A DNA stretch of 45,237 nucleotides, from NCBI RefSeq assembly GCF_016429285.1, contig NZ_JAELUI010000037.1, forward strand, positions 1-45,237, read 5' to 3'. Each line of letters opens with the position of its first letter. Within the stretch, counting starts at the first letter, position 1. Below, in pieces: positions 1,145 through 9,039 of the stretch. The stretch is from Ralstonia sp. ASV6. Lineage in GTDB: Bacteria; Pseudomonadota; Gammaproteobacteria; Burkholderiales; Burkholderiaceae. Position numbers and translations under genes: made by a program. A model generated the notes under the pieces. That model made no database searches. It was not told the origin of the DNA and saw nothing but the letters and a program-made list of their open reading frames with translations.

Positions 1145-1179
1145 GCCAGCCGGCGCTTGAATCGGTGGGCCGGCTCCTT

Positions 1180-1199
1180 GTTGTACGACGTCTTATAAC
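1180..1199. promoter_or_regulatory. Candidate GntR operator downstream of the regulator gene (site 2)
   Basis: GTTGTACGACGTCTTATAAC is a strong imperfect palindrome, with 8 of 10 arm positions pairing. It begins 36 bp after the regulator stop. Its reverse complement matches site 1 at 17 of 20 positions. No protein gene on the plus strand follows, so it controls either the candidate RNA at 1286-1385 or nothing that remains here. Confidence 0.55.
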
Positions 1200-1285
1200 A
1201 AATCGACACACATTCAGCGCTACCGTACCCAGATGCGTGTTGATAAAGATTTGCATTGTGTCGGCGCCAGCCACGTAACCTGAAT

Positions 1286-1385
1286 AGGCACCGACCCCTC
1301 GTGGGTGCGCTCCGGTCGCGGAAGAGAGAGCCGCGATCTACTTGGCCCTGATGCTGCTGTCCCGAGTATCAGGGCGCTTTTCTTT
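1286..1385 (+). ncRNA. Candidate small RNA: three hairpins with intrinsic terminator
   Basis: Three hairpins stand in a row. They are GCACC/GGTGC (1288-1308), a perfect TCGCGG/CCGCGA stem with loop AAGAGAGAG (1316-1336), and GCCCTGAT/ATCAGGGC followed by GCTTTTCTTT (1345-1385). A second, separate terminator for the convergent protein genes follows at 1411-1437, so the first is not needed to end gntR. The purine-rich single-stranded loop could bind pyrimidine-rich RNA. No clear promoter was found, and I recognise no known RNA family. It could simply be the processed 3' UTR of gntR. Confidence 0.35.
1345..1385 (+). terminator. Intrinsic terminator
   Basis: An 8-bp perfect stem GCCCTGAT (1345-1352) / ATCAGGGC (1368-1375) with a 15-nt loop is followed by GCTTTTCTTT. 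It ends plus-strand transcription from gntR or from the candidate small RNA. Confidence 0.6.
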
Positions 1386-1406
1386 GGGCGCTCCCATTCG
1401 AGCAAC

Positions 1407-1437
1407 AAAAAAGCCCCGACAGGCGGGGCTTTGTTTT
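1407..1437. terminator. Bidirectional terminator between gntR and response regulator
   Basis: The stem GCCCCG (1413-1418) / CGGGGC (1424-1429) has an A-run on the left and TTTGTTTT on the right, so it can terminate in both directions. It serves gntR from the left and the minus-strand response regulator ending at 1469. Confidence 0.8.
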
Positions 1438-1468
1438 GTGTGGGGAGGCTTTCAGCGTGGCTGCGTCA

Positions 1469-2170
1469 TCAAACGACGCTTTCCATCACACGCTCCAAGC
1501 AGAAACCCTGTCCGTAGATCGCCCGCAGGCGCAGGCCGTTCTCAGCGCCCAGCAGCAACTTCTTGCGCAGGCGGGAGACGTGCGTGTCAAGCGTGCGTGA
1601 GTACGGGCTCAGCTCACGCCCCCACAACGCCAGTTCGATATCTGCACGAGACAGCACACGCCCAGCATTTGCAAACAGCAGCAACGCCAACTCAAACTCG
1701 CGAGCGTGCACCGCCACCTGAGTATCGCGCAGGCGGATCGAGCGGTTCTGTCGGTCGATCGTGTAGGGCCCCAGGCAAATTTCGGAGGCGCGCACGGCAC
1801 GGCTGACGGCAAAGCGGCGGATCAGCGCATCGAGACGCGCCAGCAGCTCCGGCGGGCGAATATCGCCCTGGAAGCACAGATCTGCGCCGTGGTTCAATGC
1901 GTCGGCGGTCTCAACATCGGCCTGACCGTCAGCAAGATAAACGATGGCCATGCCAGGCCCCACACGCTCGCGCACTGTGCGCACCAGCGACAGCCCCGGC
2001 ATGTCATGTGCATTTGCACCCACCATCAGCAGGTTGATGCCGTGCACATCGATGGCCTCGAACACCTGACGGGAGAGAAACAGCGGCACGCATTCGAAGC
2101 GCGACGGCTGCAGCGCGGAGTGAATTGCCTGTTGGCGGGCGATATGTGTGTCGATCAGGCCGATCTTCAT
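1469..2170 (-). CDS. OmpR-type response regulator with degenerate (Asp-less) receiver
   Basis: The protein has 233 residues, starting at MKIGLIDTHIARQQ; AGAAAGAGA precedes this ATG, and the longer frame adds 13 unlikely residues. A receiver-like domain covers about 1-120. A winged-helix DNA-binding domain covers about 130-230 (ELALWGRELSPYSRTLDTHV, SRLRKKL). Aligned with the intact regulator at 6670-7383, the phospho-acceptor Asp is Gly51, one Asp of the acidic pair is missing, the conserved Thr is Ala80 and the conserved Lys is Gly102. The DNA-binding half remains well conserved, so it probably binds DNA independently of phosphorylation. It ends the signalling cluster and resembles the other regulator enough to suggest an old duplication. 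Its targets cannot be read from sequence. Confidence 0.85.
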   Translation of the reverse strand: MKIGLIDTHIARQQAIHSALQPSRFECVPLFLSRQVFEAIDVHGINLLMVGANAHDMPGLSLVRTVRERVGPGMAIVYLADGQADVETADALNHGADLCFQGDIRPPELLARLDALIRRFAVSRAVRASEICLGPYTIDRQNRSIRLRDTQVAVHAREFELALLLFANAGRVLSRADIELALWGRELSPYSRTLDTHVSRLRKKLLLGAENGLRLRAIYGQGFCLERVMESVV

Positions 2171-2227
2171 GGCTCGGTCTCTTTCTGGATGGGCCGCGAA
2201 GCACAGCATGCAACTGCTTCACGTAAA

Positions 2228-2428
2228 TCAACTGCAAATGACATCGCGCTGGCGCGCATCAACCCGACCGATGCCCTCGTCGCGCGAAGCGAACAAACGC
2301 CGACCAGCCAGCCAGACCTGTGCATCCTGCGGCAGATTCCCGTTGCCGCGCAGGGCTTGGTGCAGTTGCATGCGAAGGTGTTCGTATTCGCATTCGTTCA
2401 GCACATCGGTTGCGGTCTTGCTCAACAT
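2228..2428 (-). CDS. Small hypothetical protein (66 aa) in the signalling cluster
   Basis: The 66-codon frame starts MLSKTATDVLNECEYEHLRM. AAGGTG lies about 6 nt before the ATG, a plausible ribosome binding site. An upstream GTG at 2437 is also possible. Third codon positions are mostly G or C, as in the neighbouring real genes, and the frame fills most of the gap between the kinase and the degenerate regulator on the same strand. No membrane segment or signal peptide is visible. The composition is charged (several Glu, Arg and Asp) and the middle could be helical. I do not recognise a family. It may be a small partner of the signalling proteins, or a chance open frame in high-GC DNA. Confidence 0.45.
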   Translation of the reverse strand: MLSKTATDVLNECEYEHLRMQLHQALRGNGNLPQDAQVWLAGRRLFASRDEGIGRVDARQRDVICS

Positions 2429-2639
2429 ACGTAGCACCTTGGGTCGCCGGTCATTCCTGCGTGGTTCGCTTCTGCCTGCGCTTCCGGTTCTCGCCCAGGT
2501 ACCGCCGTCTCTCGACCGGGTGCATCACCCGAGTACGTTGTGCTGGTCGGCAAATGAACTGTAGGGCCGCCAGACAAGCGGATTGCAAATGATTGAAAAA
2601 GGAAAGTGGCAGAAGCCGCACCGTGTGTGCGGTTGCCGA

Positions 2640-2667
2640 AAGAGCAAACGCCTGCGTGGTCAGGCGT
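2640..2667 (-). terminator. Possible weak terminator at the kinase stop codon
   Basis: The stem ACGCCTG (2648-2654) / CAGGCGT (2661-2667) overlaps the kinase stop. On the minus strand it is followed by TTGCTCTTTC, a poor U-tract. It may reduce read-through into the small ORF and the degenerate regulator. Confidence 0.3.
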
Positions 2668-4975
2668 CTTGGTGAAGCGGCCCGCGCGGCAGCCAGACTG
2701 TGAAGGTGGAGCCCAGCCCCGGTACGCTCTGCACGGTGATGCGACCGCCATGACGCTCAATGGCAGTCTTCACGAAGACGAGGCCGAGGCCGCTGCCCGA
2801 TGGGGCGTTGGCTCCCGTCTCATGCAAGCGGTGGAATGGCTGGAACAGCCTTGGCTGATCCGCCAGCGCAATGCCAGCGCCCTGATCGGCCACGGCCACC
2901 GTGAATGCCCCTTCGTCGGCCCCCACCGATACCGTCACCAACGAACCCTGCGCGCTGAACTTGATGGCGTTGTTGAGCAGGTTAACCAAGGCACGCACCA
3001 GCAGGCGCGGCTCGCCGCGCACGGGCGCTTCGATGTCCGCCTCCACGCGCACCTCGACCTGATGGCGATTCGCCAGGGCCCAGACCTCGTCGGCAGCATC
3101 GAGCACCAGCCCAACCAGATCCACGTCCACCAGTTTGAGCGCCTGGGATTCGGCGCGTGCCAAGTCGATGAAGGCGTCAGCCAGCTCCAGCGTACGTGAC
3201 GAAAGTTGCTCGATGCGGGAGAGCAGCACCTCTCGATCCAGCGCGCGCGAGGCATCGCGCTGCAGCTCAATCAGCGCCAGGATCGCGCTCTGTGGCGAGC
3301 GCATGTCGTGCGAGATGAAGCGCAGCGCCTCTTCACGATGGCGCTCGGCTTGGCGCACGGGGGTGATATCGGCAAAGCTGACGATGATGTCAACGGGGCG
3401 ACCGGCGTCGTCGCGCAACGCGGCGGCGTGCATGAGCACCGAACGGCCATCGTGTGTATGCAGCTCGACAGGCTCCAGCTTGGCGTCGGGGTCAGCCAAC
3501 CATTGCGCCCAGTAACGTTGGCCCGCAGTCGGATCGGAAAATGCGCGCGTCAGCAGGCTCGGCAGGTCACGCAGCGCCGCGGCGCGGTTCTGGCCCGGCG
3601 TGCTCAGTTGGCCGGTGAGCCCCGCGCTGCGGCCGTTGGCAAGGCGGATCGCGCCGTCCGGTGCGCAGATGACCGTGGCATCGGGCAAGCTTTCCAGCGC
3701 ATCGGCCAGGAAGCGGCGCAGCCCGCGCAGCTTGTCGATGAGCGAGGCCACCGCATCCATGTGTGCACCGAGCGTGCGGCCCGTGCGGGCGAGCGGTGCA
3801 GTATCGGTCAGTACACCGGGTTCGCGCGCGAGGCGATAGAGTTCGGCGCGCAGGAAACGTAAAGCGGCTTCCTGCTGGCGCCAGCTCCACAGCGGGTACA
3901 GCACCAACGGCCCGACCAGCGCGGCAAACGGCGGCAGCCAGCGGTTGCCAAGCACCAGCACAGCGACCACACCCAGCAGCAACACTGCTGCACTCGCCAG
4001 CGCCACGGCCAGCGCCATGCGTGGCGTGAACCAGCGGACTGCGCACGCGGTCATCAGCAGCGGCAGCAACGTCATCACCCAGAACACGCCGTTCGGCACC
4101 GGCAGGATGGCGTTTCCATCGAGCACCGTTTGCGTGGCGTTGGCCAACACCTCGACGCCGCTCATCGTGCGCGACGTGGGCGTGGCGAAAATATCCGACA
4201 CGCCCGAAGCCGTCGCGCCAATCAGCACCAGCTTGCCCGCGAAGACTTCGGGCGGCACACGACCATTGAGCACATCCAATGCAGGCACATGCCGAAAGGT
4301 ACCGGCCGGCCCGGCAAAGTTCAGGCGGATATGCGCCTGTCGCGTCCACCCACTGGCGTCGGTTTCCAGATCCAGCGTGGCTGGCGTCGACACGGGCGCT
4401 TGTGCGGCCAGCCGCGCAAGTTGAACCGCCAGGTGGTCGAGCACGTGCCCACGTGGGCCTTCGGCCAGATACATGCCGCGCACCACGCTATCGGCATCGG
4501 CCGCGGCATTGATATGGGCGACAGTGGCCTCGATGCCGAGGAACGGATAGTGATACACGCGCCCCTGCTCTGTTCGTTCCGGCAGCGCAGGCAGGATGAC
4601 GTGACCGGCCTGGGCGATGGCCGCAGTCAAAGCGCGATCGCCCTCGGGGTGCGCGAGGTCCGGTTCGATAAACAGAATATCGACGCCGATTCCGCGCGGG
4701 TGCGCCGCCCCTACACGTGCCAGCAGATCGGCCAGACGGCTGCGCGGCCACGGCCAGCGGCCCACTGCATCCAGGCTCTGATCGTCAATGGCGACGATGA
4801 CGATGTCGTCGCGCGCTGGATGCCCATGCAGCGTGATCACGGTGTCATACAGCGCCGAATCCAGCCGCTCGACCACACTCCAGCGCACTGCACCGATCGT
4901 CAGCAGTGCAGCCAGCAGCACCAGCACGCCCCACTCCGCCAAAGAGCGCAGCCTTCCGTGCGGAGCTGTTCGCAT
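2660..4975 (-). CDS. CHASE2-PAS sensor histidine kinase
   Basis: The protein has 771 residues, taking the ATG at 4975; longer frames run into the upstream gene, which ends 4 bp away. Order of parts: a membrane helix at about 14-31; a periplasmic CHASE2 sensor at about 35-295 (IVIVAIDDQSLDAVGRWPWP); three membrane helices at about 297-364; a PAS-like domain at about 422-540; a HisKA domain with phospho-acceptor His556 in FISHDMRSPQ; and an ATPase domain with N box LVNLLNNAIKFS, G1 DQGAGI and G2 GSGLGL. All catalytic boxes are intact. CHASE2 is an extracytoplasmic ligand sensor whose ligands are generally unknown. The upstream LysM-FecR protein is probably its periplasmic partner, and the intact regulator at 6670-7383 its phosphorylation target. 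Confidence 0.9.
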   Translation of the reverse strand: MRTAPHGRLRSLAEWGVLVLLAALLTIGAVRWSVVERLDSALYDTVITLHGHPARDDIVIVAIDDQSLDAVGRWPWPRSRLADLLARVGAAHPRGIGVDILFIEPDLAHPEGDRALTAAIAQAGHVILPALPERTEQGRVYHYPFLGIEATVAHINAAADADSVVRGMYLAEGPRGHVLDHLAVQLARLAAQAPVSTPATLDLETDASGWTRQAHIRLNFAGPAGTFRHVPALDVLNGRVPPEVFAGKLVLIGATASGVSDIFATPTSRTMSGVEVLANATQTVLDGNAILPVPNGVFWVMTLLPLLMTACAVRWFTPRMALAVALASAAVLLLGVVAVLVLGNRWLPPFAALVGPLVLYPLWSWRQQEAALRFLRAELYRLAREPGVLTDTAPLARTGRTLGAHMDAVASLIDKLRGLRRFLADALESLPDATVICAPDGAIRLANGRSAGLTGQLSTPGQNRAAALRDLPSLLTRAFSDPTAGQRYWAQWLADPDAKLEPVELHTHDGRSVLMHAAALRDDAGRPVDIIVSFADITPVRQAERHREEALRFISHDMRSPQSAILALIELQRDASRALDREVLLSRIEQLSSRTLELADAFIDLARAESQALKLVDVDLVGLVLDAADEVWALANRHQVEVRVEADIEAPVRGEPRLLVRALVNLLNNAIKFSAQGSLVTVSVGADEGAFTVAVADQGAGIALADQPRLFQPFHRLHETGANAPSGSGLGLVFVKTAIERHGGRITVQSVPGLGSTFTVWLPRGPLHQDA

Positions 4976-4979
4976 CGGG

Positions 4980-6686
4980 TCAGCGAGGGTTGGTACGACC
5001 GGACCAGTCATTGAGCAAGAGATTGCCGCCGCCGCTCTGCACGGGGTTGCGCGACGAATCGCCGACGAACGCACCAACATCGATGCGCTGCGGCTTGGCA
5101 TACATAACCGATGCCGGGTCGCCCAGGTCAACGCCTGTGCGGATGTAGTACGTACCGGCTGGCGGCTGCGGAATGGCGGCTTCGCTGCCGTCACTCACGA
5201 TGTCGGCAACCGGTTTGGCAAAGGTCGGCTCGCTGGCAAGCTGCACGCGCGTGCGCGCGCCGGCTGCTGCCAGTTCGGGCGCGAGTGCGGGCCAGTGGGC
5301 GTGCAGCATGCCGTCGTCGCCTGCATCAACGGAGGCTGGGGGCACAGCACCCGGCGGAATATCGAGCGCCTGGAAGCGCAGCGCATCGCTCCACGGGCCG
5401 GTCTTGCCGTCTTCAGCCACCGAGCGCACGCGCCACCACCAGGAGCCTGCGCTCAACGCCTTGGTCACGCGCACATCCTGCCCGCGTTGCTGGACAACGG
5501 GCGACGCAAAGGTCTCCGTGTCGCCTACTTCTACATCGTAGCTGCGCGCATCCGACACCGTTGCCCATGAGAACACCAGCTCACCGCTGCGATAGGTTTT
5601 TCCGCTCGCTGGCTGAATCGTGTATGGCGCCTCCGGGTGCAGGCGCACCGTAAAGGGTCGCGTGGCCGACGGGCTGGTCAGGCCAAGCGCGTCAATGCTC
5701 TGCACAACCAAGGTGTAGTCGCCGTCTTCGTCACCGCACAGGGTAGCGCCCGGCGTCTTGCTGTGTTGATAGGCACTCAGTTCGGTCAAGGCGGCGTCAC
5801 GCGCAACGGCCGCACGATAGGCAACCGCCCCTTTCACCGGCTGCCACATCGCCCGGAAGCACGGCCGCTGCACCAGATCCGGAATGGCGTCGAGTTTTGG
5901 CGCCGCAGGCAGCGCCGCGCGCTTGAGGTGTCCGCCTGAGACCTGTACGCCAAACCCGGCTTTGACTCCCTGCGTTCGGCGGCCGGCCTGGGCGGCTACT
6001 TCCCCTTCGAGCACGGAACTGGTCGATACGGACTCGCTTGCCTGCACGCGAAAGCGCGTGCCGCGTACGCCCGTCACGAGCGACGGCGTGGAAATCTCAT
6101 AGCGGCCTACGCCCGTTTTCCTGGGCGAAACGTTCGACTCGGCCTCGCCCTGTTTCACGTGCACACGCACGTCGATCAGCCCAGCGCGCGCAAACGCACG
6201 CACACGCGACAACGCCACGCGGCTGCCCGGCGGCACGGTCACGCGTGTGCCGTCATCAAATGCGAGCGTGACGGCGCCCTTGTCGCCGGTTTCGATCTGC
6301 GTGTCTTCTGCGAGCTTCATGCCGGCTTGCAGCGGCTTGCGGTCGGCGGTCGTGGCGTCGCGCGCAAACACGACCTGCGCCGTGGCCGGCACCACCGGAA
6401 TGCGGTCGAAGGGAATCCGCAGCACAGAGCCCGGCTGCAAGTGGTACGGATCCGCGACGTGGTTGCGCTGCTGCAGCAGGCGCCAACCTTCGACGCTATC
6501 CATGTAGCGGTCTGCCAGGGCGATCAGCGTGTCGCCGGGCTGGACGCGATAGAGGAAATCGCTGCCGTCTGCGCCGGAAGGCTGTGCAACCGCCGCCTGC
6601 CAGACGCCCCCAAAAACAACAAGCGCGCCGACAACCGCGGCGCGCCCGAGCCTTTTGCGTCGAAACGCTTCAACCTGCTTCGCCAT
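4980..6686 (-). CDS. LysM and FecR domain periplasmic protein with C-terminal Fn3-like repeats
   Basis: The protein has 568 residues, taking the ATG at 6686 (MAKQVEAFRRKR), which overlaps the end of the upstream regulator gene by 17 bp. A signal peptide is visible at 1-35: a basic start, a hydrophobic core AAVVGALVVFGGV, and a cleavage-like AVAQ. A LysM peptidoglycan-binding domain covers about 45-92 (YRVQPGDTLIALADRYMDS). A FecR domain covers about 130-235, including ISTPSLVTGVRGTRFRV. Beta-rich repeats follow, with a pattern like fibronectin type III (FSWATVSDARSYDVEVGDTE). The protein likely sits in the periplasm anchored to the cell wall and signals to, or scaffolds, the CHASE2 kinase encoded 4 bp downstream. 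FecR domains are also known from metal-siderophore sensing, but no TonB receptor or ECF sigma partner is here. Confidence 0.85.
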   Translation of the reverse strand: MAKQVEAFRRKRLGRAAVVGALVVFGGVWQAAVAQPSGADGSDFLYRVQPGDTLIALADRYMDSVEGWRLLQQRNHVADPYHLQPGSVLRIPFDRIPVVPATAQVVFARDATTADRKPLQAGMKLAEDTQIETGDKGAVTLAFDDGTRVTVPPGSRVALSRVRAFARAGLIDVRVHVKQGEAESNVSPRKTGVGRYEISTPSLVTGVRGTRFRVQASESVSTSSVLEGEVAAQAGRRTQGVKAGFGVQVSGGHLKRAALPAAPKLDAIPDLVQRPCFRAMWQPVKGAVAYRAAVARDAALTELSAYQHSKTPGATLCGDEDGDYTLVVQSIDALGLTSPSATRPFTVRLHPEAPYTIQPASGKTYRSGELVFSWATVSDARSYDVEVGDTETFASPVVQQRGQDVRVTKALSAGSWWWRVRSVAEDGKTGPWSDALRFQALDIPPGAVPPASVDAGDDGMLHAHWPALAPELAAAGARTRVQLASEPTFAKPVADIVSDGSEAAIPQPPAGTYYIRTGVDLGDPASVMYAKPQRIDVGAFVGDSSRNPVQSGGGNLLLNDWSGRTNPR

Positions 6687-7383
6687 CGTCTTGTGTGGTT
6701 TCGAGTCGATAGCCATGCGAGTACACCGAGACGAGCCGCACGCCATTCTTCTGATTGAGATCCAGCTTGAGCCGCAGCTTGGAGATGTGGGTGGCGAGTG
6801 TGCGCGAATCCGGGCCGATGCTGCGCCCCCAGACGGCTTGCTCGATCAGCTCGCGCGGCACCAGCTTGCCGACATTGCGGAACAGGTACAGCCCCAGGTC
6901 GAATTCCCGCGGCGACAGCTCGACCTGCGACCCATTCAGTGTCAGCACACGTCCGATCGGGTCCACAGCATACGGACCCACGCGGATGCGCTCAAGCGAT
7001 TCGCTGGTGCGCGGCGCGGCGCGGCGCAGCAAGGCGCCCACGCGTGCCACCAGTTCAGCGCGGCGCACCGGTTTGATGACGTAGTCATCCGCGCCGGCAG
7101 CCAGCCCGCGTACCACATCATCTTCGAGTGAGCGGTTGGTCAGGAACAGCACCGGCAGCGCAGGGCCGACCGTCTGCCGCACCCAGCTCACGAGCTGGAT
7201 GCCGCTGATGTCCGGCAACTGCCAGTCAAGCAGCAGCAGGTCGAAGGTTCGATCCCGCAGCGCCTTGACGAAGGCATCACCGCTACTGAAAGACTCGCAT
7301 TCGTATCCGGACGAAACCAGGATCTCTCGAATCAACTCCGATTGCGCCTGGTTGTCTTCTACCGAGGCAATTCGTATCGCCAT
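6670..7383 (-). CDS. OmpR-type response regulator (intact receiver)
   Basis: This 237-residue two-component regulator is the first gene of the minus-strand signalling cluster. The receiver (about 1-120) keeps all active-site residues: acidic pair E9-D10, phospho-acceptor D53 in LLLLDWQLPD, T82, and K104 in DYVIKP. A winged-helix output domain covers about 133-230 and includes AVWGRSIGPDSRTLATHISK. It is the likely target of the CHASE2 kinase. Its stop overlaps the start of the LysM-FecR gene, which suggests translational coupling. A 414-bp non-coding region precedes it, with a tandem repeat that may be its own binding site. Confidence 0.9.
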   Translation of the reverse strand: MAIRIASVEDNQAQSELIREILVSSGYECESFSSGDAFVKALRDRTFDLLLLDWQLPDISGIQLVSWVRQTVGPALPVLFLTNRSLEDDVVRGLAAGADDYVIKPVRRAELVARVGALLRRAAPRTSESLERIRVGPYAVDPIGRVLTLNGSQVELSPREFDLGLYLFRNVGKLVPRELIEQAVWGRSIGPDSRTLATHISKLRLKLDLNQKNGVRLVSVYSHGYRLETTQDDGEAG

Positions 7384-7661
7384 CTGGACTGCCTTTTCCC
7401 CGCTCCGGGCCCGGCTGTTCAGCCGGCTCCCGCCGCCGCTACATGGGACGCCGGCTCGCTCCCTTTGTCGTTGTGATCGGGGTCCCGGACCAGCGCATCA
7501 TGGTTTGATCCGCCGGCCACCTCCGGCGCGGCACCGACTCCCGCGCAAGACCTTACCCAGGCCACCAACATGCCTTACATGTCGACTTGAGCCCAGGTCA
7601 TCCTAAAAGGCCAACCCTGTCATATTGCAAACAATTGTGAAAACCTAGGCGCAGAGCCAAA

Positions 7662-7699
7662 GTTCTGTCGTGTTCTATCATTTTTCACCACGTCAGAAC
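7662..7699. promoter_or_regulatory. Candidate OmpR-type binding site (10-bp tandem repeat plus inverted copy)
   Basis: GTTCTGTC and GTTCTATC are direct repeats with a 10-bp period, typical of paired OmpR/PhoB-family half-sites on one helix face. A third copy, GTCAGAAC, lies inverted 12 bp away. Position upstream of the cluster suggests autoregulation by one of its two regulators. Confidence 0.4.
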
Positions 7700-7718
7700 A
7701 AGGCAGACCCCTTCGAAA

Positions 7719-7747
7719 AGTATAGGACTCGGCTTATCGAATGGCAG
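7719..7747 (-). promoter_or_regulatory. Candidate promoter of the signalling cluster
   Basis: On the minus strand, CTGCCA (7747-7742, 4/6 to TTGACA) is spaced 17 bp from TATACT (7724-7719, 5/6 to TATAAT). The start point would be near 7712. The match is suggestive only. Confidence 0.3.
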
Positions 7748-7776
7748 GCCCGCCGGGTATACACCGGTCTAGCACA

Positions 7777-7792
7777 CCCCTCGAAAGAGGGG
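7777..7792. repeat. Perfect hairpin with GAAA tetraloop after the MFS gene
   Basis: CCCCTC-GAAA-GAGGGG forms a 6-bp stem closed by a stable GNRA loop on the plus strand. It lies 5 bp beyond the MFS stop. There is no U-tract in either direction, so it is more likely an mRNA 3'-end stabiliser than an intrinsic terminator. Confidence 0.4.
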
Positions 7793-7797
7793 AATTG

Positions 7798-9039
7798 CTA
7801 GCGCGCTTCCACCTCCAGCCGGCGCGTCCACGCCGCGGTTGCCGCCCAGAACCCCAGCGCCGCCACGCTGATGCCCGCGCCCAAGAGGCACACGCCCAAC
7901 CACCCCGTCCACGCATACACCGCTGTTGAGGCCATTGCCCCCAGCCCACTGCCGGCCGCGTAGAACAGCATGTAGGCACCGACCAGTCGGCTATGCGCGT
8001 CCGGATGCAAGCGGAAGATCAAACTCTGGTTGAGCACGTGAACGGCCTGCCCACCCAGATCAAGCAGGATGACGCCAACAATGAGCCAGGCTAGATGCTG
8101 CAAACCCAACCCCAACGGCACCCAGGCGATCAGCAGCAACCCCAGCGCGGCGGCAGTGGCCGGCTGCGCCCACCCGCGGTCTGCTAAGCGCCCCGCACGT
8201 ACTGCCGCCAGCGCACCTACCGCCCCTACCAGCCCGAACATGCCGATACCCGCCGTCGAAAACGCATACGGCGGCGCACTCAACGCCAATGCCAGCGCGC
8301 TCCAGAACACGCTGAATGCTGCAAACATCAATAGGCCGATCAACCCACGCACCTGCAGCACGCGTTCGGTCAGCAGCAATTGCCACGTCGAGCGGAGTAG
8401 CGCGCCGTAGCGCATGGGCACAGCTTCCATCGGCGGTGCTGGCAGCCAGCGCCACAACACAGCCAGCATCGTTACCGAGATCCCCCCCGACACGGCATAC
8501 ACCGCTCGCCAGCCCCAGGCATCTGCGATGATGCCCGCCACCGCCCGCGCGACGAGCAACCCGATCACCACGCCACCTTGCACCACGCCGAGCACACGGC
8601 CGCGCTCTTTCACCGAGGCCAACGCAGCGGCACAGGCGATCAAACCCTGCGTCATCGCCGTCCCCAGCAGGCCAACGCCCAGCATGCCCAGCAACAGCGG
8701 CCAACGCGTTTGTGCGAGGCACACACACAGCAGCGCCGCAGTCAGCAATACAAGCTGAACAAGCAACAGTGGCTTGCGTGGCCAGCGGTCACCCAGCGGC
8801 ACCACCAGCGCCAACGCCAGCGCGCATCCCGCCTGCGTTGCGCCGATGATGCCTCCGGTCCAGGCATCGCTCAGCGCAAAGTCGCGGGCCAACGCATCGA
8901 GCAACGGCTGCGCGAAGTAGACGTTGGCCACGCTGACCGCCGCACACATCGCCAGCATGGCAACCCAAGCCCGTGGCAAAGCGCCCACGGGAGCAATCTT
9001 CTCCCCGGGCGAATCAGCAGCAAGAGAATCGACAAGCAT
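7798..9039 (-). CDS. MFS transporter, drug/arabinose efflux type
   Basis: This 413-residue inner-membrane protein has about 12 hydrophobic helices. The start is taken at MLVDSLAADSPGEK (ATG 9039), because longer frames read back through the regulatory palindrome. The first helix contains NVYFAQPLLDALARDF, followed by the loop signature GDRWPRKP, both usual in the YnfM/arabinose-efflux group of major facilitator permeases. The transporter probably exports small organic compounds in exchange for protons; the substrate cannot be told. It is divergent from an HxlR regulator with a 25-bp palindrome between them, a common arrangement for inducible efflux genes. Confidence 0.85.
   Translation of the reverse strand: MLVDSLAADSPGEKIAPVGALPRAWVAMLAMCAAVSVANVYFAQPLLDALARDFALSDAWTGGIIGATQAGCALALALVVPLGDRWPRKPLLLVQLVLLTAALLCVCLAQTRWPLLLGMLGVGLLGTAMTQGLIACAAALASVKERGRVLGVVQGGVVIGLLVARAVAGIIADAWGWRAVYAVSGGISVTMLAVLWRWLPAPPMEAVPMRYGALLRSTWQLLLTERVLQVRGLIGLLMFAAFSVFWSALALALSAPPYAFSTAGIGMFGLVGAVGALAAVRAGRLADRGWAQPATAAALGLLLIAWVPLGLGLQHLAWLIVGVILLDLGGQAVHVLNQSLIFRLHPDAHSRLVGAYMLFYAAGSGLGAMASTAVYAWTGWLGVCLLGAGISVAALGFWAATAAWTRRLEVEAR

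What the first reader, a model, noticed from the sequence alone, without database searches (positions are those of the whole stretch)
1469..7747. Five-gene CHASE2/LysM-FecR signalling module with two unequal response regulators
One strand carries an intact OmpR-type regulator, a secreted LysM-FecR-Fn3-like protein, a CHASE2-PAS histidine kinase, a 66-codon ORF and a degenerate OmpR-type regulator. The first three are joined by a 17-bp overlap and a 4-bp gap. LysM suggests the FecR protein is bound to peptidoglycan, and CHASE2 is an extracytoplasmic sensor, so the pair could read the state of the cell wall. Having one phosphorylatable and one non-phosphorylatable regulator suggests competition for, or cooperation at, shared sites. 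The domains are seen in sequence; the wiring is inference.
Basis: partly seen in the sequence, partly recalled or inferred. Interest (0 to 1): 0.75.

Follow-up and report, generated by a model that had tools for sequence, protein, structure and literature searches.

The report
Sensor operon plus a crippled twin
A known bacterial cell-envelope sensing operon carries, in the genus Ralstonia, an extra regulator that has lost the residues needed for the usual on-switch yet is strongly preserved, and both regulator genes have the same rare DNA signature in front of them, which suggests one shared control loop.

Summary
The ORFs are as described. Three (OmpR-type regulator RR1, secreted LysM-FecR protein, CHASE2-PAS kinase) form the published 'BiofilmReg' operon of Burkholderiales (PMC5192318), which lists R. 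pickettii as three-component. Not mentioned in the parts of that paper I read is RR2, the downstream OmpR-type regulator: a pseudo-receiver (four of five phosphorylation residues lost), at the same place in 16 of 16 genus genomes searched, under strong purifying selection (pN/pS 0.094; receiver 0.072, DNA-binding domain 0.070); no orthologue was found in the 283 other family genomes searched. The 66-codon ORF is weakly supported. The longest invariant runs upstream of RR1 and of RR2 share CAATNNTTTGCA, followed at the same distance by a -10-like hexamer in 16 of 16. CAATNNTTTGCAAT occurs exactly twice in the window's 5.9-Mb genome, at these two places. Which regulator binds, and with what sign, is untested; a two-sequence shuffle test and a sigma-70 scan did not support the element. 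Works like C. difficile CmrRST; a new variant of a known kind.

The parts
6670..7383 (-). RR1: OmpR/PhoB-type response regulator with intact phosphorylation residues (E9, D10, D53, T82, K104)
   Evidence: 94-100% identical in 15 other genus genomes; pN/pS 0.043
4980..6686 (-). Secreted LysM-FecR protein (hydrophobic N-terminal segment consistent with a signal peptide; LysM 46-92, FecR 130-230)
   Evidence: 17-bp overlap with RR1
2660..4975 (-). CHASE2-PAS-HisKA-HATPase sensor histidine kinase
   Evidence: 4-bp gap after FecR gene; 81-94% identical in the 15 other genus genomes
2228..2428 (-). 66-codon ORF in the RR2 leader; only its first 30 codons look coding
   Evidence: pN/pS 0.34 for codons 1-30, 0.85 for 31-66; frame broken in L038, absent in L045; no Pfam match up to E 1, no NCBIfam match up to E 0.01
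1469..2170 (-). RR2: OmpR/PhoB-type regulator with a pseudo-receiver (D, T, G, A, G at the five positions) and a winged-helix domain
   Evidence: 16 of 16 genus genomes; pN/pS 0.094
7624..7643 (-). Operator-like element upstream of RR1: TTTTCACAATTGTTTGCAAT (CAAT-N6-CAAT, 10-bp direct repeat)
   Evidence: longest invariant run upstream of RR1 in 16 genomes
7600..7605 (-). -10-like TAGGAT, 18 nt after the element
   Evidence: TAGGAT or TAGCAT in 16 of 16; not flagged by the sigma-70 scan
2582..2600 (-). Operator-like element upstream of RR2: TTTTTCAATCATTTGCAAT (CAAT-N6-CAAT; last CAAT is CATT in 9 of 16)
   Evidence: longest invariant run in the kinase-RR2 gap in 16 genomes (still longest without L045)
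2558..2563 (-). -10-like TACAGT, 18 nt after the element
   Evidence: TACAGT, TACAAT or TACATT in 16 of 16; not flagged by the sigma-70 scan
1410..1432 (.). Terminator-like hairpin downstream of RR2 (found on both strands)
   Evidence: 8 terminator-like sites in the stretch, 5.0 expected by shuffles

Best explanation
The locus is the known RR / LysM-FecR / CHASE2-kinase operon, to which an ancestor of the genus Ralstonia added a diverged second OmpR-type regulator. Proposed mechanism: the peptidoglycan-associated FecR protein and the CHASE2 domain sense an envelope state; the kinase phosphorylates RR1; RR1-P binds the CAAT-N6-CAAT element in front of its own operon and in front of RR2. RR2 cannot be phosphorylated in the usual way, folds and dimerises anyway, and so works by dosage: made from a promoter with RR1's operator, it binds the same or related sites and amplifies or damps the RR1 output. 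Shown by sequence: gene set, synteny, loss of active-site residues, purifying selection on both RR2 domains, a shared promoter-region element, exact copies of which are nearly confined to this locus, with equal spacing to a -10-like hexamer. Inferred: that the element is an operator of RR1 and/or RR2, the dosage mode, the sign, the sensed signal, FecR-CHASE2 contact.
For: RR2 in 16 of 16 genus genomes at 480-520 bits, next best in the 299 family genomes 155 bits (at most 9 candidates per genome scored). pN/pS of RR2 0.094, receiver 0.072, DNA-binding domain 0.070, against 0.18 for the kinase and 0.21 for FecR. Four of five active-site positions lost in 6 of 6 RR2 rows compared. In the 14-row alignment of RR2, RR1 and one outside regulator, 9 of 16 invariant receiver columns lie in residues 95-119, the stretch of the usual alpha4-beta5-alpha5 dimer face (role of that face recalled, and named for CmrT in PMC12548384). 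AlphaFold model mean pLDDT 84.6, pTM 0.61, with receiver and winged-helix elements; Foldseek hits are OmpR/PhoB regulators, including atypical HP1043 and CosR. CAATNNTTTGCAAT: exactly 2 sites in 5.9 Mb, both here; 23 exact sites in 16 genomes, 22 here; backwards-pattern control 0 in all 16. Starting from RR1's site alone, 19 sites with <=2 mismatches in the genome (control 6), one of them in the 489-nt gap. Invariant runs; equal 18-nt spacing in 16 of 16.
Against: A pairwise comparison of the two window upstream regions alone is not significant (37 of 150 shuffles score as high). The sigma-70 scan flagged neither element; its one hit in 1150-7800 is elsewhere and at the chance level. The motif was chosen after seeing the alignment. 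With one mismatch the own genome has 8 further sites (10 in all, control 2). The element is absent upstream of 15 of 15 RR1-type genes outside the genus group (one of them a paralogue in the own genome), so it is not an ancestral RR1 site. No further conserved target was found. In 9 of 16 genomes the RR2 element has CATT for the last CAAT. No binding, expression or phosphorylation data for these proteins were found.
Confidence: 0.56

Rival explanations
1. RR2 acts mainly by heterodimerising with RR1 (coincidence detector or dominant-negative), and the shared element is a heterodimer site.
For: Dimer-face residues are over-represented among what RR1 and RR2 share in the receiver; the recognition-helix regions are similar (SRTLDTHVSRLRKKL / SRTLATHISKLRLKL); precedents BldM/WhiI and CmrR/CmrT (PMC12632262, PMC12548384).
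Against: Nothing here tests a contact; RR1 and RR2 are only 35% identical.
Confidence: 0.17
2. The CAAT-N6-CAAT element belongs to an unrelated transcription factor that co-regulates both promoters, and RR2 regulates something else altogether.
For: The element is missing from RR1-type upstream regions outside the genus group (15 of 15), so RR1 orthologues do not need it; one-mismatch sites exist elsewhere in the genome (8).
Against: A general factor should have good sites elsewhere, but exact matches are confined to this locus apart from 1 of 23. A 10-bp direct repeat suits OmpR/PhoB dimers (recalled).
Confidence: 0.18
3. RR2 is a stand-alone sensor-regulator, for example thiol-based: Cys27, Cys99 and Cys224 are invariant in 16 of 16 and the last two are absent from RR1.
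For: Cysteine columns; RitR, titled a redox-sensor family evolved from response regulators, is among the structural matches.
Against: Overall invariance of RR2 is so high that invariant cysteines are little evidence; RitR's switch cysteine lies in the linker (recalled), where RR2 has no conserved cysteine (column 132 varies).
Confidence: 0.08

Closest known systems
BiofilmReg operon of Burkholderia contaminans and other Burkholderiales (Voronina et al. 2016, PMC5192318; parts 1-4 of 6 of the text and the tables read)
   Same: Same gene order RR - LysM/FecR - CHASE2-PAS kinase; FecR gene starts inside RR; R. pickettii 12J and DTP0602 listed. One plasposon insertion in its RR gene abolished biofilm formation in B. 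contaminans.
   Different: Burkholderia has a DUF4136 protein as fourth gene; the paper calls the Ralstonia operon three-component and, in the parts read, does not mention RR2, the 66-codon ORF or the shared element.
CmrRST of Clostridioides difficile (PMC12548384: abstract and first part of the Discussion read)
   Same: One kinase, one ordinary OmpR-type regulator, one pseudo-receiver OmpR-type regulator; the ordinary one binds upstream of its own operon; biofilm among the phenotypes.
   Different: cmrR and cmrT are co-transcribed and CmrT is only mildly altered (DD to DGD, D to E); RR2 has lost four of five residues and has its own promoter-like element. The CmrR site is an inverted repeat, here a direct repeat. 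No claim of common descent.
Bacterial pseudo-receivers / atypical response regulators (PMC12632262: abstract and the sections on composition at key positions and on the two kinds of indirect mechanism read)
   Same: Loss of active-site residues with retained fold; dosage-type and heterodimer models are proposed there.
   Different: Here the pseudo-receiver is tied by position to a CHASE2/FecR kinase operon and shares its element.
CHASE2 adenylate cyclase - FecR clusters of Campylobacterota (PMC9239204: passages read)
   Same: FecR-domain protein encoded in a cluster with a CHASE2 sensor.
   Different: Output is a cyclase, not a kinase; no pseudo-receiver regulator in the passage.

Membership tests
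BiofilmReg operon | Gene order RR, LysM-FecR, CHASE2 kinase on one strand | tested here: met
BiofilmReg operon | FecR gene starts inside the RR gene; short gap to the kinase gene | tested here: met
   17-bp overlap, 4-bp gap; 10-bp gap in B. contaminans (PMC5192318)
BiofilmReg operon | DUF4136 fourth gene (Burkholderia form only) | tested here: not met
   No DUF4136 among the five proteins; the paper itself lists three-component forms, Ralstonia among them
BiofilmReg operon | Needed for biofilm formation | not testable with these tools
   needs a deletion strain
Pseudo-receiver (PsR) | One or more of the five residues DD, D, T/S, K missing | tested here: met
   D, T/A, G, A/G, G in 6 of 6 RR2 rows; E, D, D, T, K in 6 of 6 RR1 rows
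Pseudo-receiver (PsR) | Not a decaying pseudogene | tested here: met
   pN/pS 0.094 over 16 genomes
OmpR/PhoB family | Receiver fold plus winged-helix DNA-binding domain | tested here: met
   (the receiver scores under Pfam's cut-off but has the fold in the model)
CmrRST-type three-component system | Kinase, ordinary RR and pseudo-receiver RR in one transcription unit | tested here: inconclusive
   All three within 6 kb on one strand, but RR2 has its own promoter-like element; transcription itself not tested
CmrRST-type three-component system | RR autoactivates and the two RRs can dimerise | not testable with these tools
   shared element only

The most novel reading that the evidence does not exclude
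A genus-specific, two-site private circuit: a kinase-driven regulator and a phosphorylation-blind twin bind the same CAAT-N6-CAAT operator, exact copies of which exist in the genome only at their own two promoters. The twin's level then sets gain or threshold of an envelope-sensing operon, so that competition between an active and a pseudo-receiver regulator can be measured at just two natural sites.
Probability: 0.3. Interest if true: 0.62.

Novelty: new variant of a known kind. Interest (0 to 1): 0.45.

Why it matters
A 2025 review says in its abstract that the mechanisms which switch bacterial pseudo-receivers on and off remain a mystery (PMC12632262). This locus offers a natural pair, an ordinary and a pseudo-receiver OmpR-type regulator, with two shared sites whose exact form is nearly unique in the genome, fixed across the genus genomes searched, beside a kinase operon already linked to biofilm formation in a relative. 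It also shows FecR-CHASE2 neighbourhood across kinase, cyclase and GGDEF outputs, pointing to a portable periplasmic sensing pair.

Tried and rejected
Structure of the LysM-FecR protein: the model was poor (mean pLDDT 52.7) and was not used; the 'Fn3-like' part therefore rests on weak Ig-like Pfam hits only.

Pairwise shuffle test of the two upstream regions: not significant (37 of 150); the sigma-70 scan flagged neither element. The case rests on 16-genome invariance and genome-wide rarity instead.

Invariance recount: the genome L045, which lacks the 66-codon ORF stretch, made invariance impossible over that stretch. Without L045 the RR2 element is still the longest invariant run (12) but two runs of 9 appear beside it; without L045 and L046 a run of 13 at the RR2 start codon is longer.

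Wider regulon: of the 8 other sites with one mismatch in the own genome, 7 lie inside a mechanical ORF of 80 aa or more and 1 between such ORFs. One recurring site (CAGTCCTTTGCAAT) lies on the opposite strand over the ribosome-binding region of what looks by eye like an acetolactate-synthase gene; judged coincidence. The many one-mismatch sites of the other 15 genomes (listing cut) were not followed.

Motif upstream of RR1-type genes outside the genus group: no CAAT-N6-CAAT in 450 nt for 15 of 15 loci tried, best match 2 to 5 mismatches.

RNA families: three matches with E up to 1 in 1150-7800, all under their gathering scores.

RR2 orthologues elsewhere: the named-genome scan returned 12 loci, 11 orthologous (nine records named Ralstonia, two named only Burkholderiaceae) and one distant Massilia regulator. 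I did not test plant-pathogenic Ralstonia by name.

Literature for RR2: searches 'CHASE2 + FecR', 'CHASE2 + LysM + histidine kinase', 'Ralstonia + CHASE2 + histidine kinase', 'BCAL1443', 'PA4036', 'CHASE2 domain / adenylate cyclase / FecR', and 'Ralstonia' with three pseudo-receiver terms: no listed title or abstract start names it; only open-access papers are held and most listed papers were not opened.

Errors of mine: for the FecR survey the CHASE2 ORF of several loci was first taken on the wrong strand; corrected. L201 entered the family scan wrongly and was rescanned. The 39 loci were picked by me from the cut listing for diversity and contig length, not at random; the 21 without a FecR neighbour were aligned but their output domains were not scanned.
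Full report
What is there. RR1 (6670-7383) overlaps the LysM-FecR gene (4980-6686) by 17 bp, which is followed after 4 bp by the CHASE2-PAS kinase gene (2660-4975); then a 231-nt gap, a 66-codon ORF (2228-2428), 57 nt, and RR2 (1469-2170). Pfam confirms the domains, except that no Fn3 model is listed and HisKA is just under its cut-off. The kinase keeps its H, N and G boxes (box names recalled). The own genome has one CHASE2 match at E <= 0.001, this one.

The trio is known. The RR / LysM-FecR / CHASE2-kinase operon was described in 2016 as 'BiofilmReg' from Burkholderia contaminans, where a plasposon in the RR gene abolished biofilm formation; its table lists R. pickettii 12J and DTP0602 as three-component (PMC5192318). 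In my sample of 61 genomes the kinase has near full-length matches at 81-100% identity in 16 of 16 genus genomes and at lower identity in other families. In the 18 non-genus loci first examined, RR1, FecR and kinase homologues are together in 11 (10 in this order, L048 in another order), RR and kinase without a FecR hit in 3, FecR and CHASE2 part in 1, neither in 3 (some contigs or matches are partial); L151, fetched later, has the trio too. RR2 has no orthologue in these loci: its hits are cross-matches to RR1-type genes.

RR2 is the new part. It is present at the same place in 16 of 16 genus genomes (480-520 bits), while the next best match in 299 genomes of the family, those 16 included, scores 155 bits (at most 9 candidates per genome scored). 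A named-genome scan gave 11 orthologous loci, nine in records named Ralstonia and two named Burkholderiaceae. The five phosphorylation positions read E, D, D, T, K in 6 of 6 RR1 rows and D, T, G, A, G in RR2 (4 of 6 rows exactly; two rows differ at one position each and regain nothing). By the criterion given in PMC12548384 and PMC12632262 it is a pseudo-receiver. It is no relic: pN/pS over all pairs of 16 genomes is 0.094, with receiver 0.072 and DNA-binding domain 0.070; RR1 0.043, kinase 0.177, FecR 0.213. In a tree of 37 regulators RR2 sits on a very long stem (2.69 changes per column) followed by short branches, inside the group of RR1-like regulators (support 88/79, not strong; long branches make the place unsure). 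This fits duplication, fast change, then fixation before the sampled genus members split.

The receiver residues that RR2 still shares with RR1 and a distant regulator cluster in residues 95-119: 9 of 16 invariant receiver columns in 14 rows. The model is fairly confident (mean pLDDT 84.6, pTM 0.61) and has receiver and winged-helix elements, matching OmpR/PhoB structures, among them the atypical HP1043 and CosR and the redox regulator RitR.

The shared element. Over 16 genomes the longest invariant run in 330 nt upstream of RR1 is TTTTCACAATTGTTTGCA (18 nt; 17 of 18 columns of the site invariant against 92 of 312 elsewhere). In the kinase-RR2 gap the only invariant run of 7 or more is CAATCATTTGCA (16 of 18 columns in the site against 46 of 477 elsewhere). 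That second contrast is inflated by L045, which lacks much of the gap: without it the site is still 16 of 18 and the longest run, but elsewhere rises to 147 of 477 with two 9-nt runs; dropping L046 as well, a 13-nt run at the RR2 start is longer. Both elements contain CAAT-N6-CAAT, a 10-bp direct repeat (CAAT-N6-CATT upstream of RR2 in 9 of 16; CAAT-N6-CAGT upstream of RR1 in 1 of 16), and both are followed after 18 nt by a -10-like hexamer (TAGGAT/TAGCAT; TACAGT/TACAAT/TACATT) in 16 of 16. CAATNNTTTGCAAT occurs exactly twice in the 5.9-Mb genome, at these two places; in 16 genomes there are 23 exact matches, 22 of them at these two places, with 0 for the backwards control. With one mismatch the own genome has 10 sites, 8 of them elsewhere (control 2). 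Starting from RR1's site alone (CAATTGTTTGCAAT, up to 2 mismatches) there are 19 sites in the genome (control 6), and one falls in the 489-nt gap; for the 18 other than RR1's own, about 0.0015 would be expected there.

Against the element: a direct comparison of the two window sequences is not significant (37 of 150 shuffles), the sigma-70 scan flagged neither site, the pattern was chosen after seeing the alignment, and 15 of 15 RR1-type genes outside the genus group lack it.

RR2 is probably not just the fifth gene of an operon: it has a promoter-like element matching that of RR1. No terminator-like hairpin was found between the kinase stop and that element; three weak ones lie further on, at 2245-2315 in the RR2 leader, in a stretch with 8 such sites where 5.0 are expected. 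Read-through remains possible. Whether RR1, RR2 or both bind, and whether RR2 competes or cooperates, is open. The closest model is CmrRST of C. difficile, where the ordinary regulator autoactivates its operon and the pseudo-receiver regulator is thought to act by its amount or as heterodimer (PMC12548384, PMC12632262).

The 66-codon ORF. Over 14 genomes codons 1-30 show frame-specific constraint (0.34 against 0.67 and 1.88), codons 31-66 do not (0.85 against 1.05 and 0.77); the frame is broken in L038 and the ORF is absent in L045, where RR2 starts 131 nt from the start of the element. It may be a short leader peptide or nothing.

FecR and CHASE2. In 39 CHASE2 loci chosen by me for diversity from a 249-genome search of the phylum (158 genomes with a match), 18 have a FecR-like ORF within about 4 kb, 13 within 200 nt: 6 upstream on the same strand, 7 downstream on the opposite strand. 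The 26 control loci (133 kb against 351 kb, mostly from this family) had none. Nine of the 18 neighbours were checked and all nine pass Pfam's FecR cut-off. Of the 18 CHASE2 proteins, by tally 14 match a cyclase domain, 3 a kinase ATPase domain, 1 GGDEF. Such a neighbourhood was noted before in Campylobacterota (PMC9239204). So FecR goes with CHASE2 rather than with a given output, which supports, but does not prove, a sensing pair; 21 of 39 loci have no such neighbour.

Verdict. The trio is ordinary and published; the pseudo-receiver twin with a shared promoter-region element is a new variant of a known kind and worth a footprinting experiment.

Noticed in passing
7672-7685 (- strand): A second invariant run upstream of RR1, AAAAATGATAGAAC, in 16 of 16 genomes, 28 nt upstream of the operator-like element; role unknown.
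   Followed up: no
L149 5036-5707 and 5953-6633; L152 5020-5697 and 5992-6702: In another genus of the family, pairs of divergent OmpR-type regulators of the same subfamily, one of them with altered receiver residues (Q, A, D, G, K in L149): a possible independent paired-regulator case.
   Followed up: partly
L062 4986-8092 (own genome, contig C352): A second RR plus CHASE2-like kinase pair, 30% identical to the kinase here and not found by the Pfam CHASE2 search, with no FecR hit in the locus.
   Followed up: partly
L146 6001-6702 and L147 5983-6681 (own genome): Two further RR1-like regulators (52-53% identical to RR1) without a kinase hit in the locus, beside genes that by eye look like EAL-type, glycosyltransferase or methyltransferase genes.
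   Followed up: no
1374-1431 (+ strand): Sub-threshold match to the Xanthomonas sRNA family asX2 (37 bits, gathering 70, E 1.6e-4) between the FadR-like gene and RR2.
   Followed up: no
RR2 1469-2170: Cys27, Cys99 and Cys224 are invariant in 16 of 16 genomes; RR1 of the window has only the first counterpart.
   Followed up: no
L047, genome G019: A CHASE2 kinase gene 41-43% identical to this one without RR1 or FecR hits in the locus, while the same genome has a full trio elsewhere (L063).
   Followed up: no
L044 (genome G012), FecR gene: The LysM-FecR reading frame ends at codon 495 here and the homology continues in a second piece; a natural frame break or an assembly error, not resolved.
   Followed up: no
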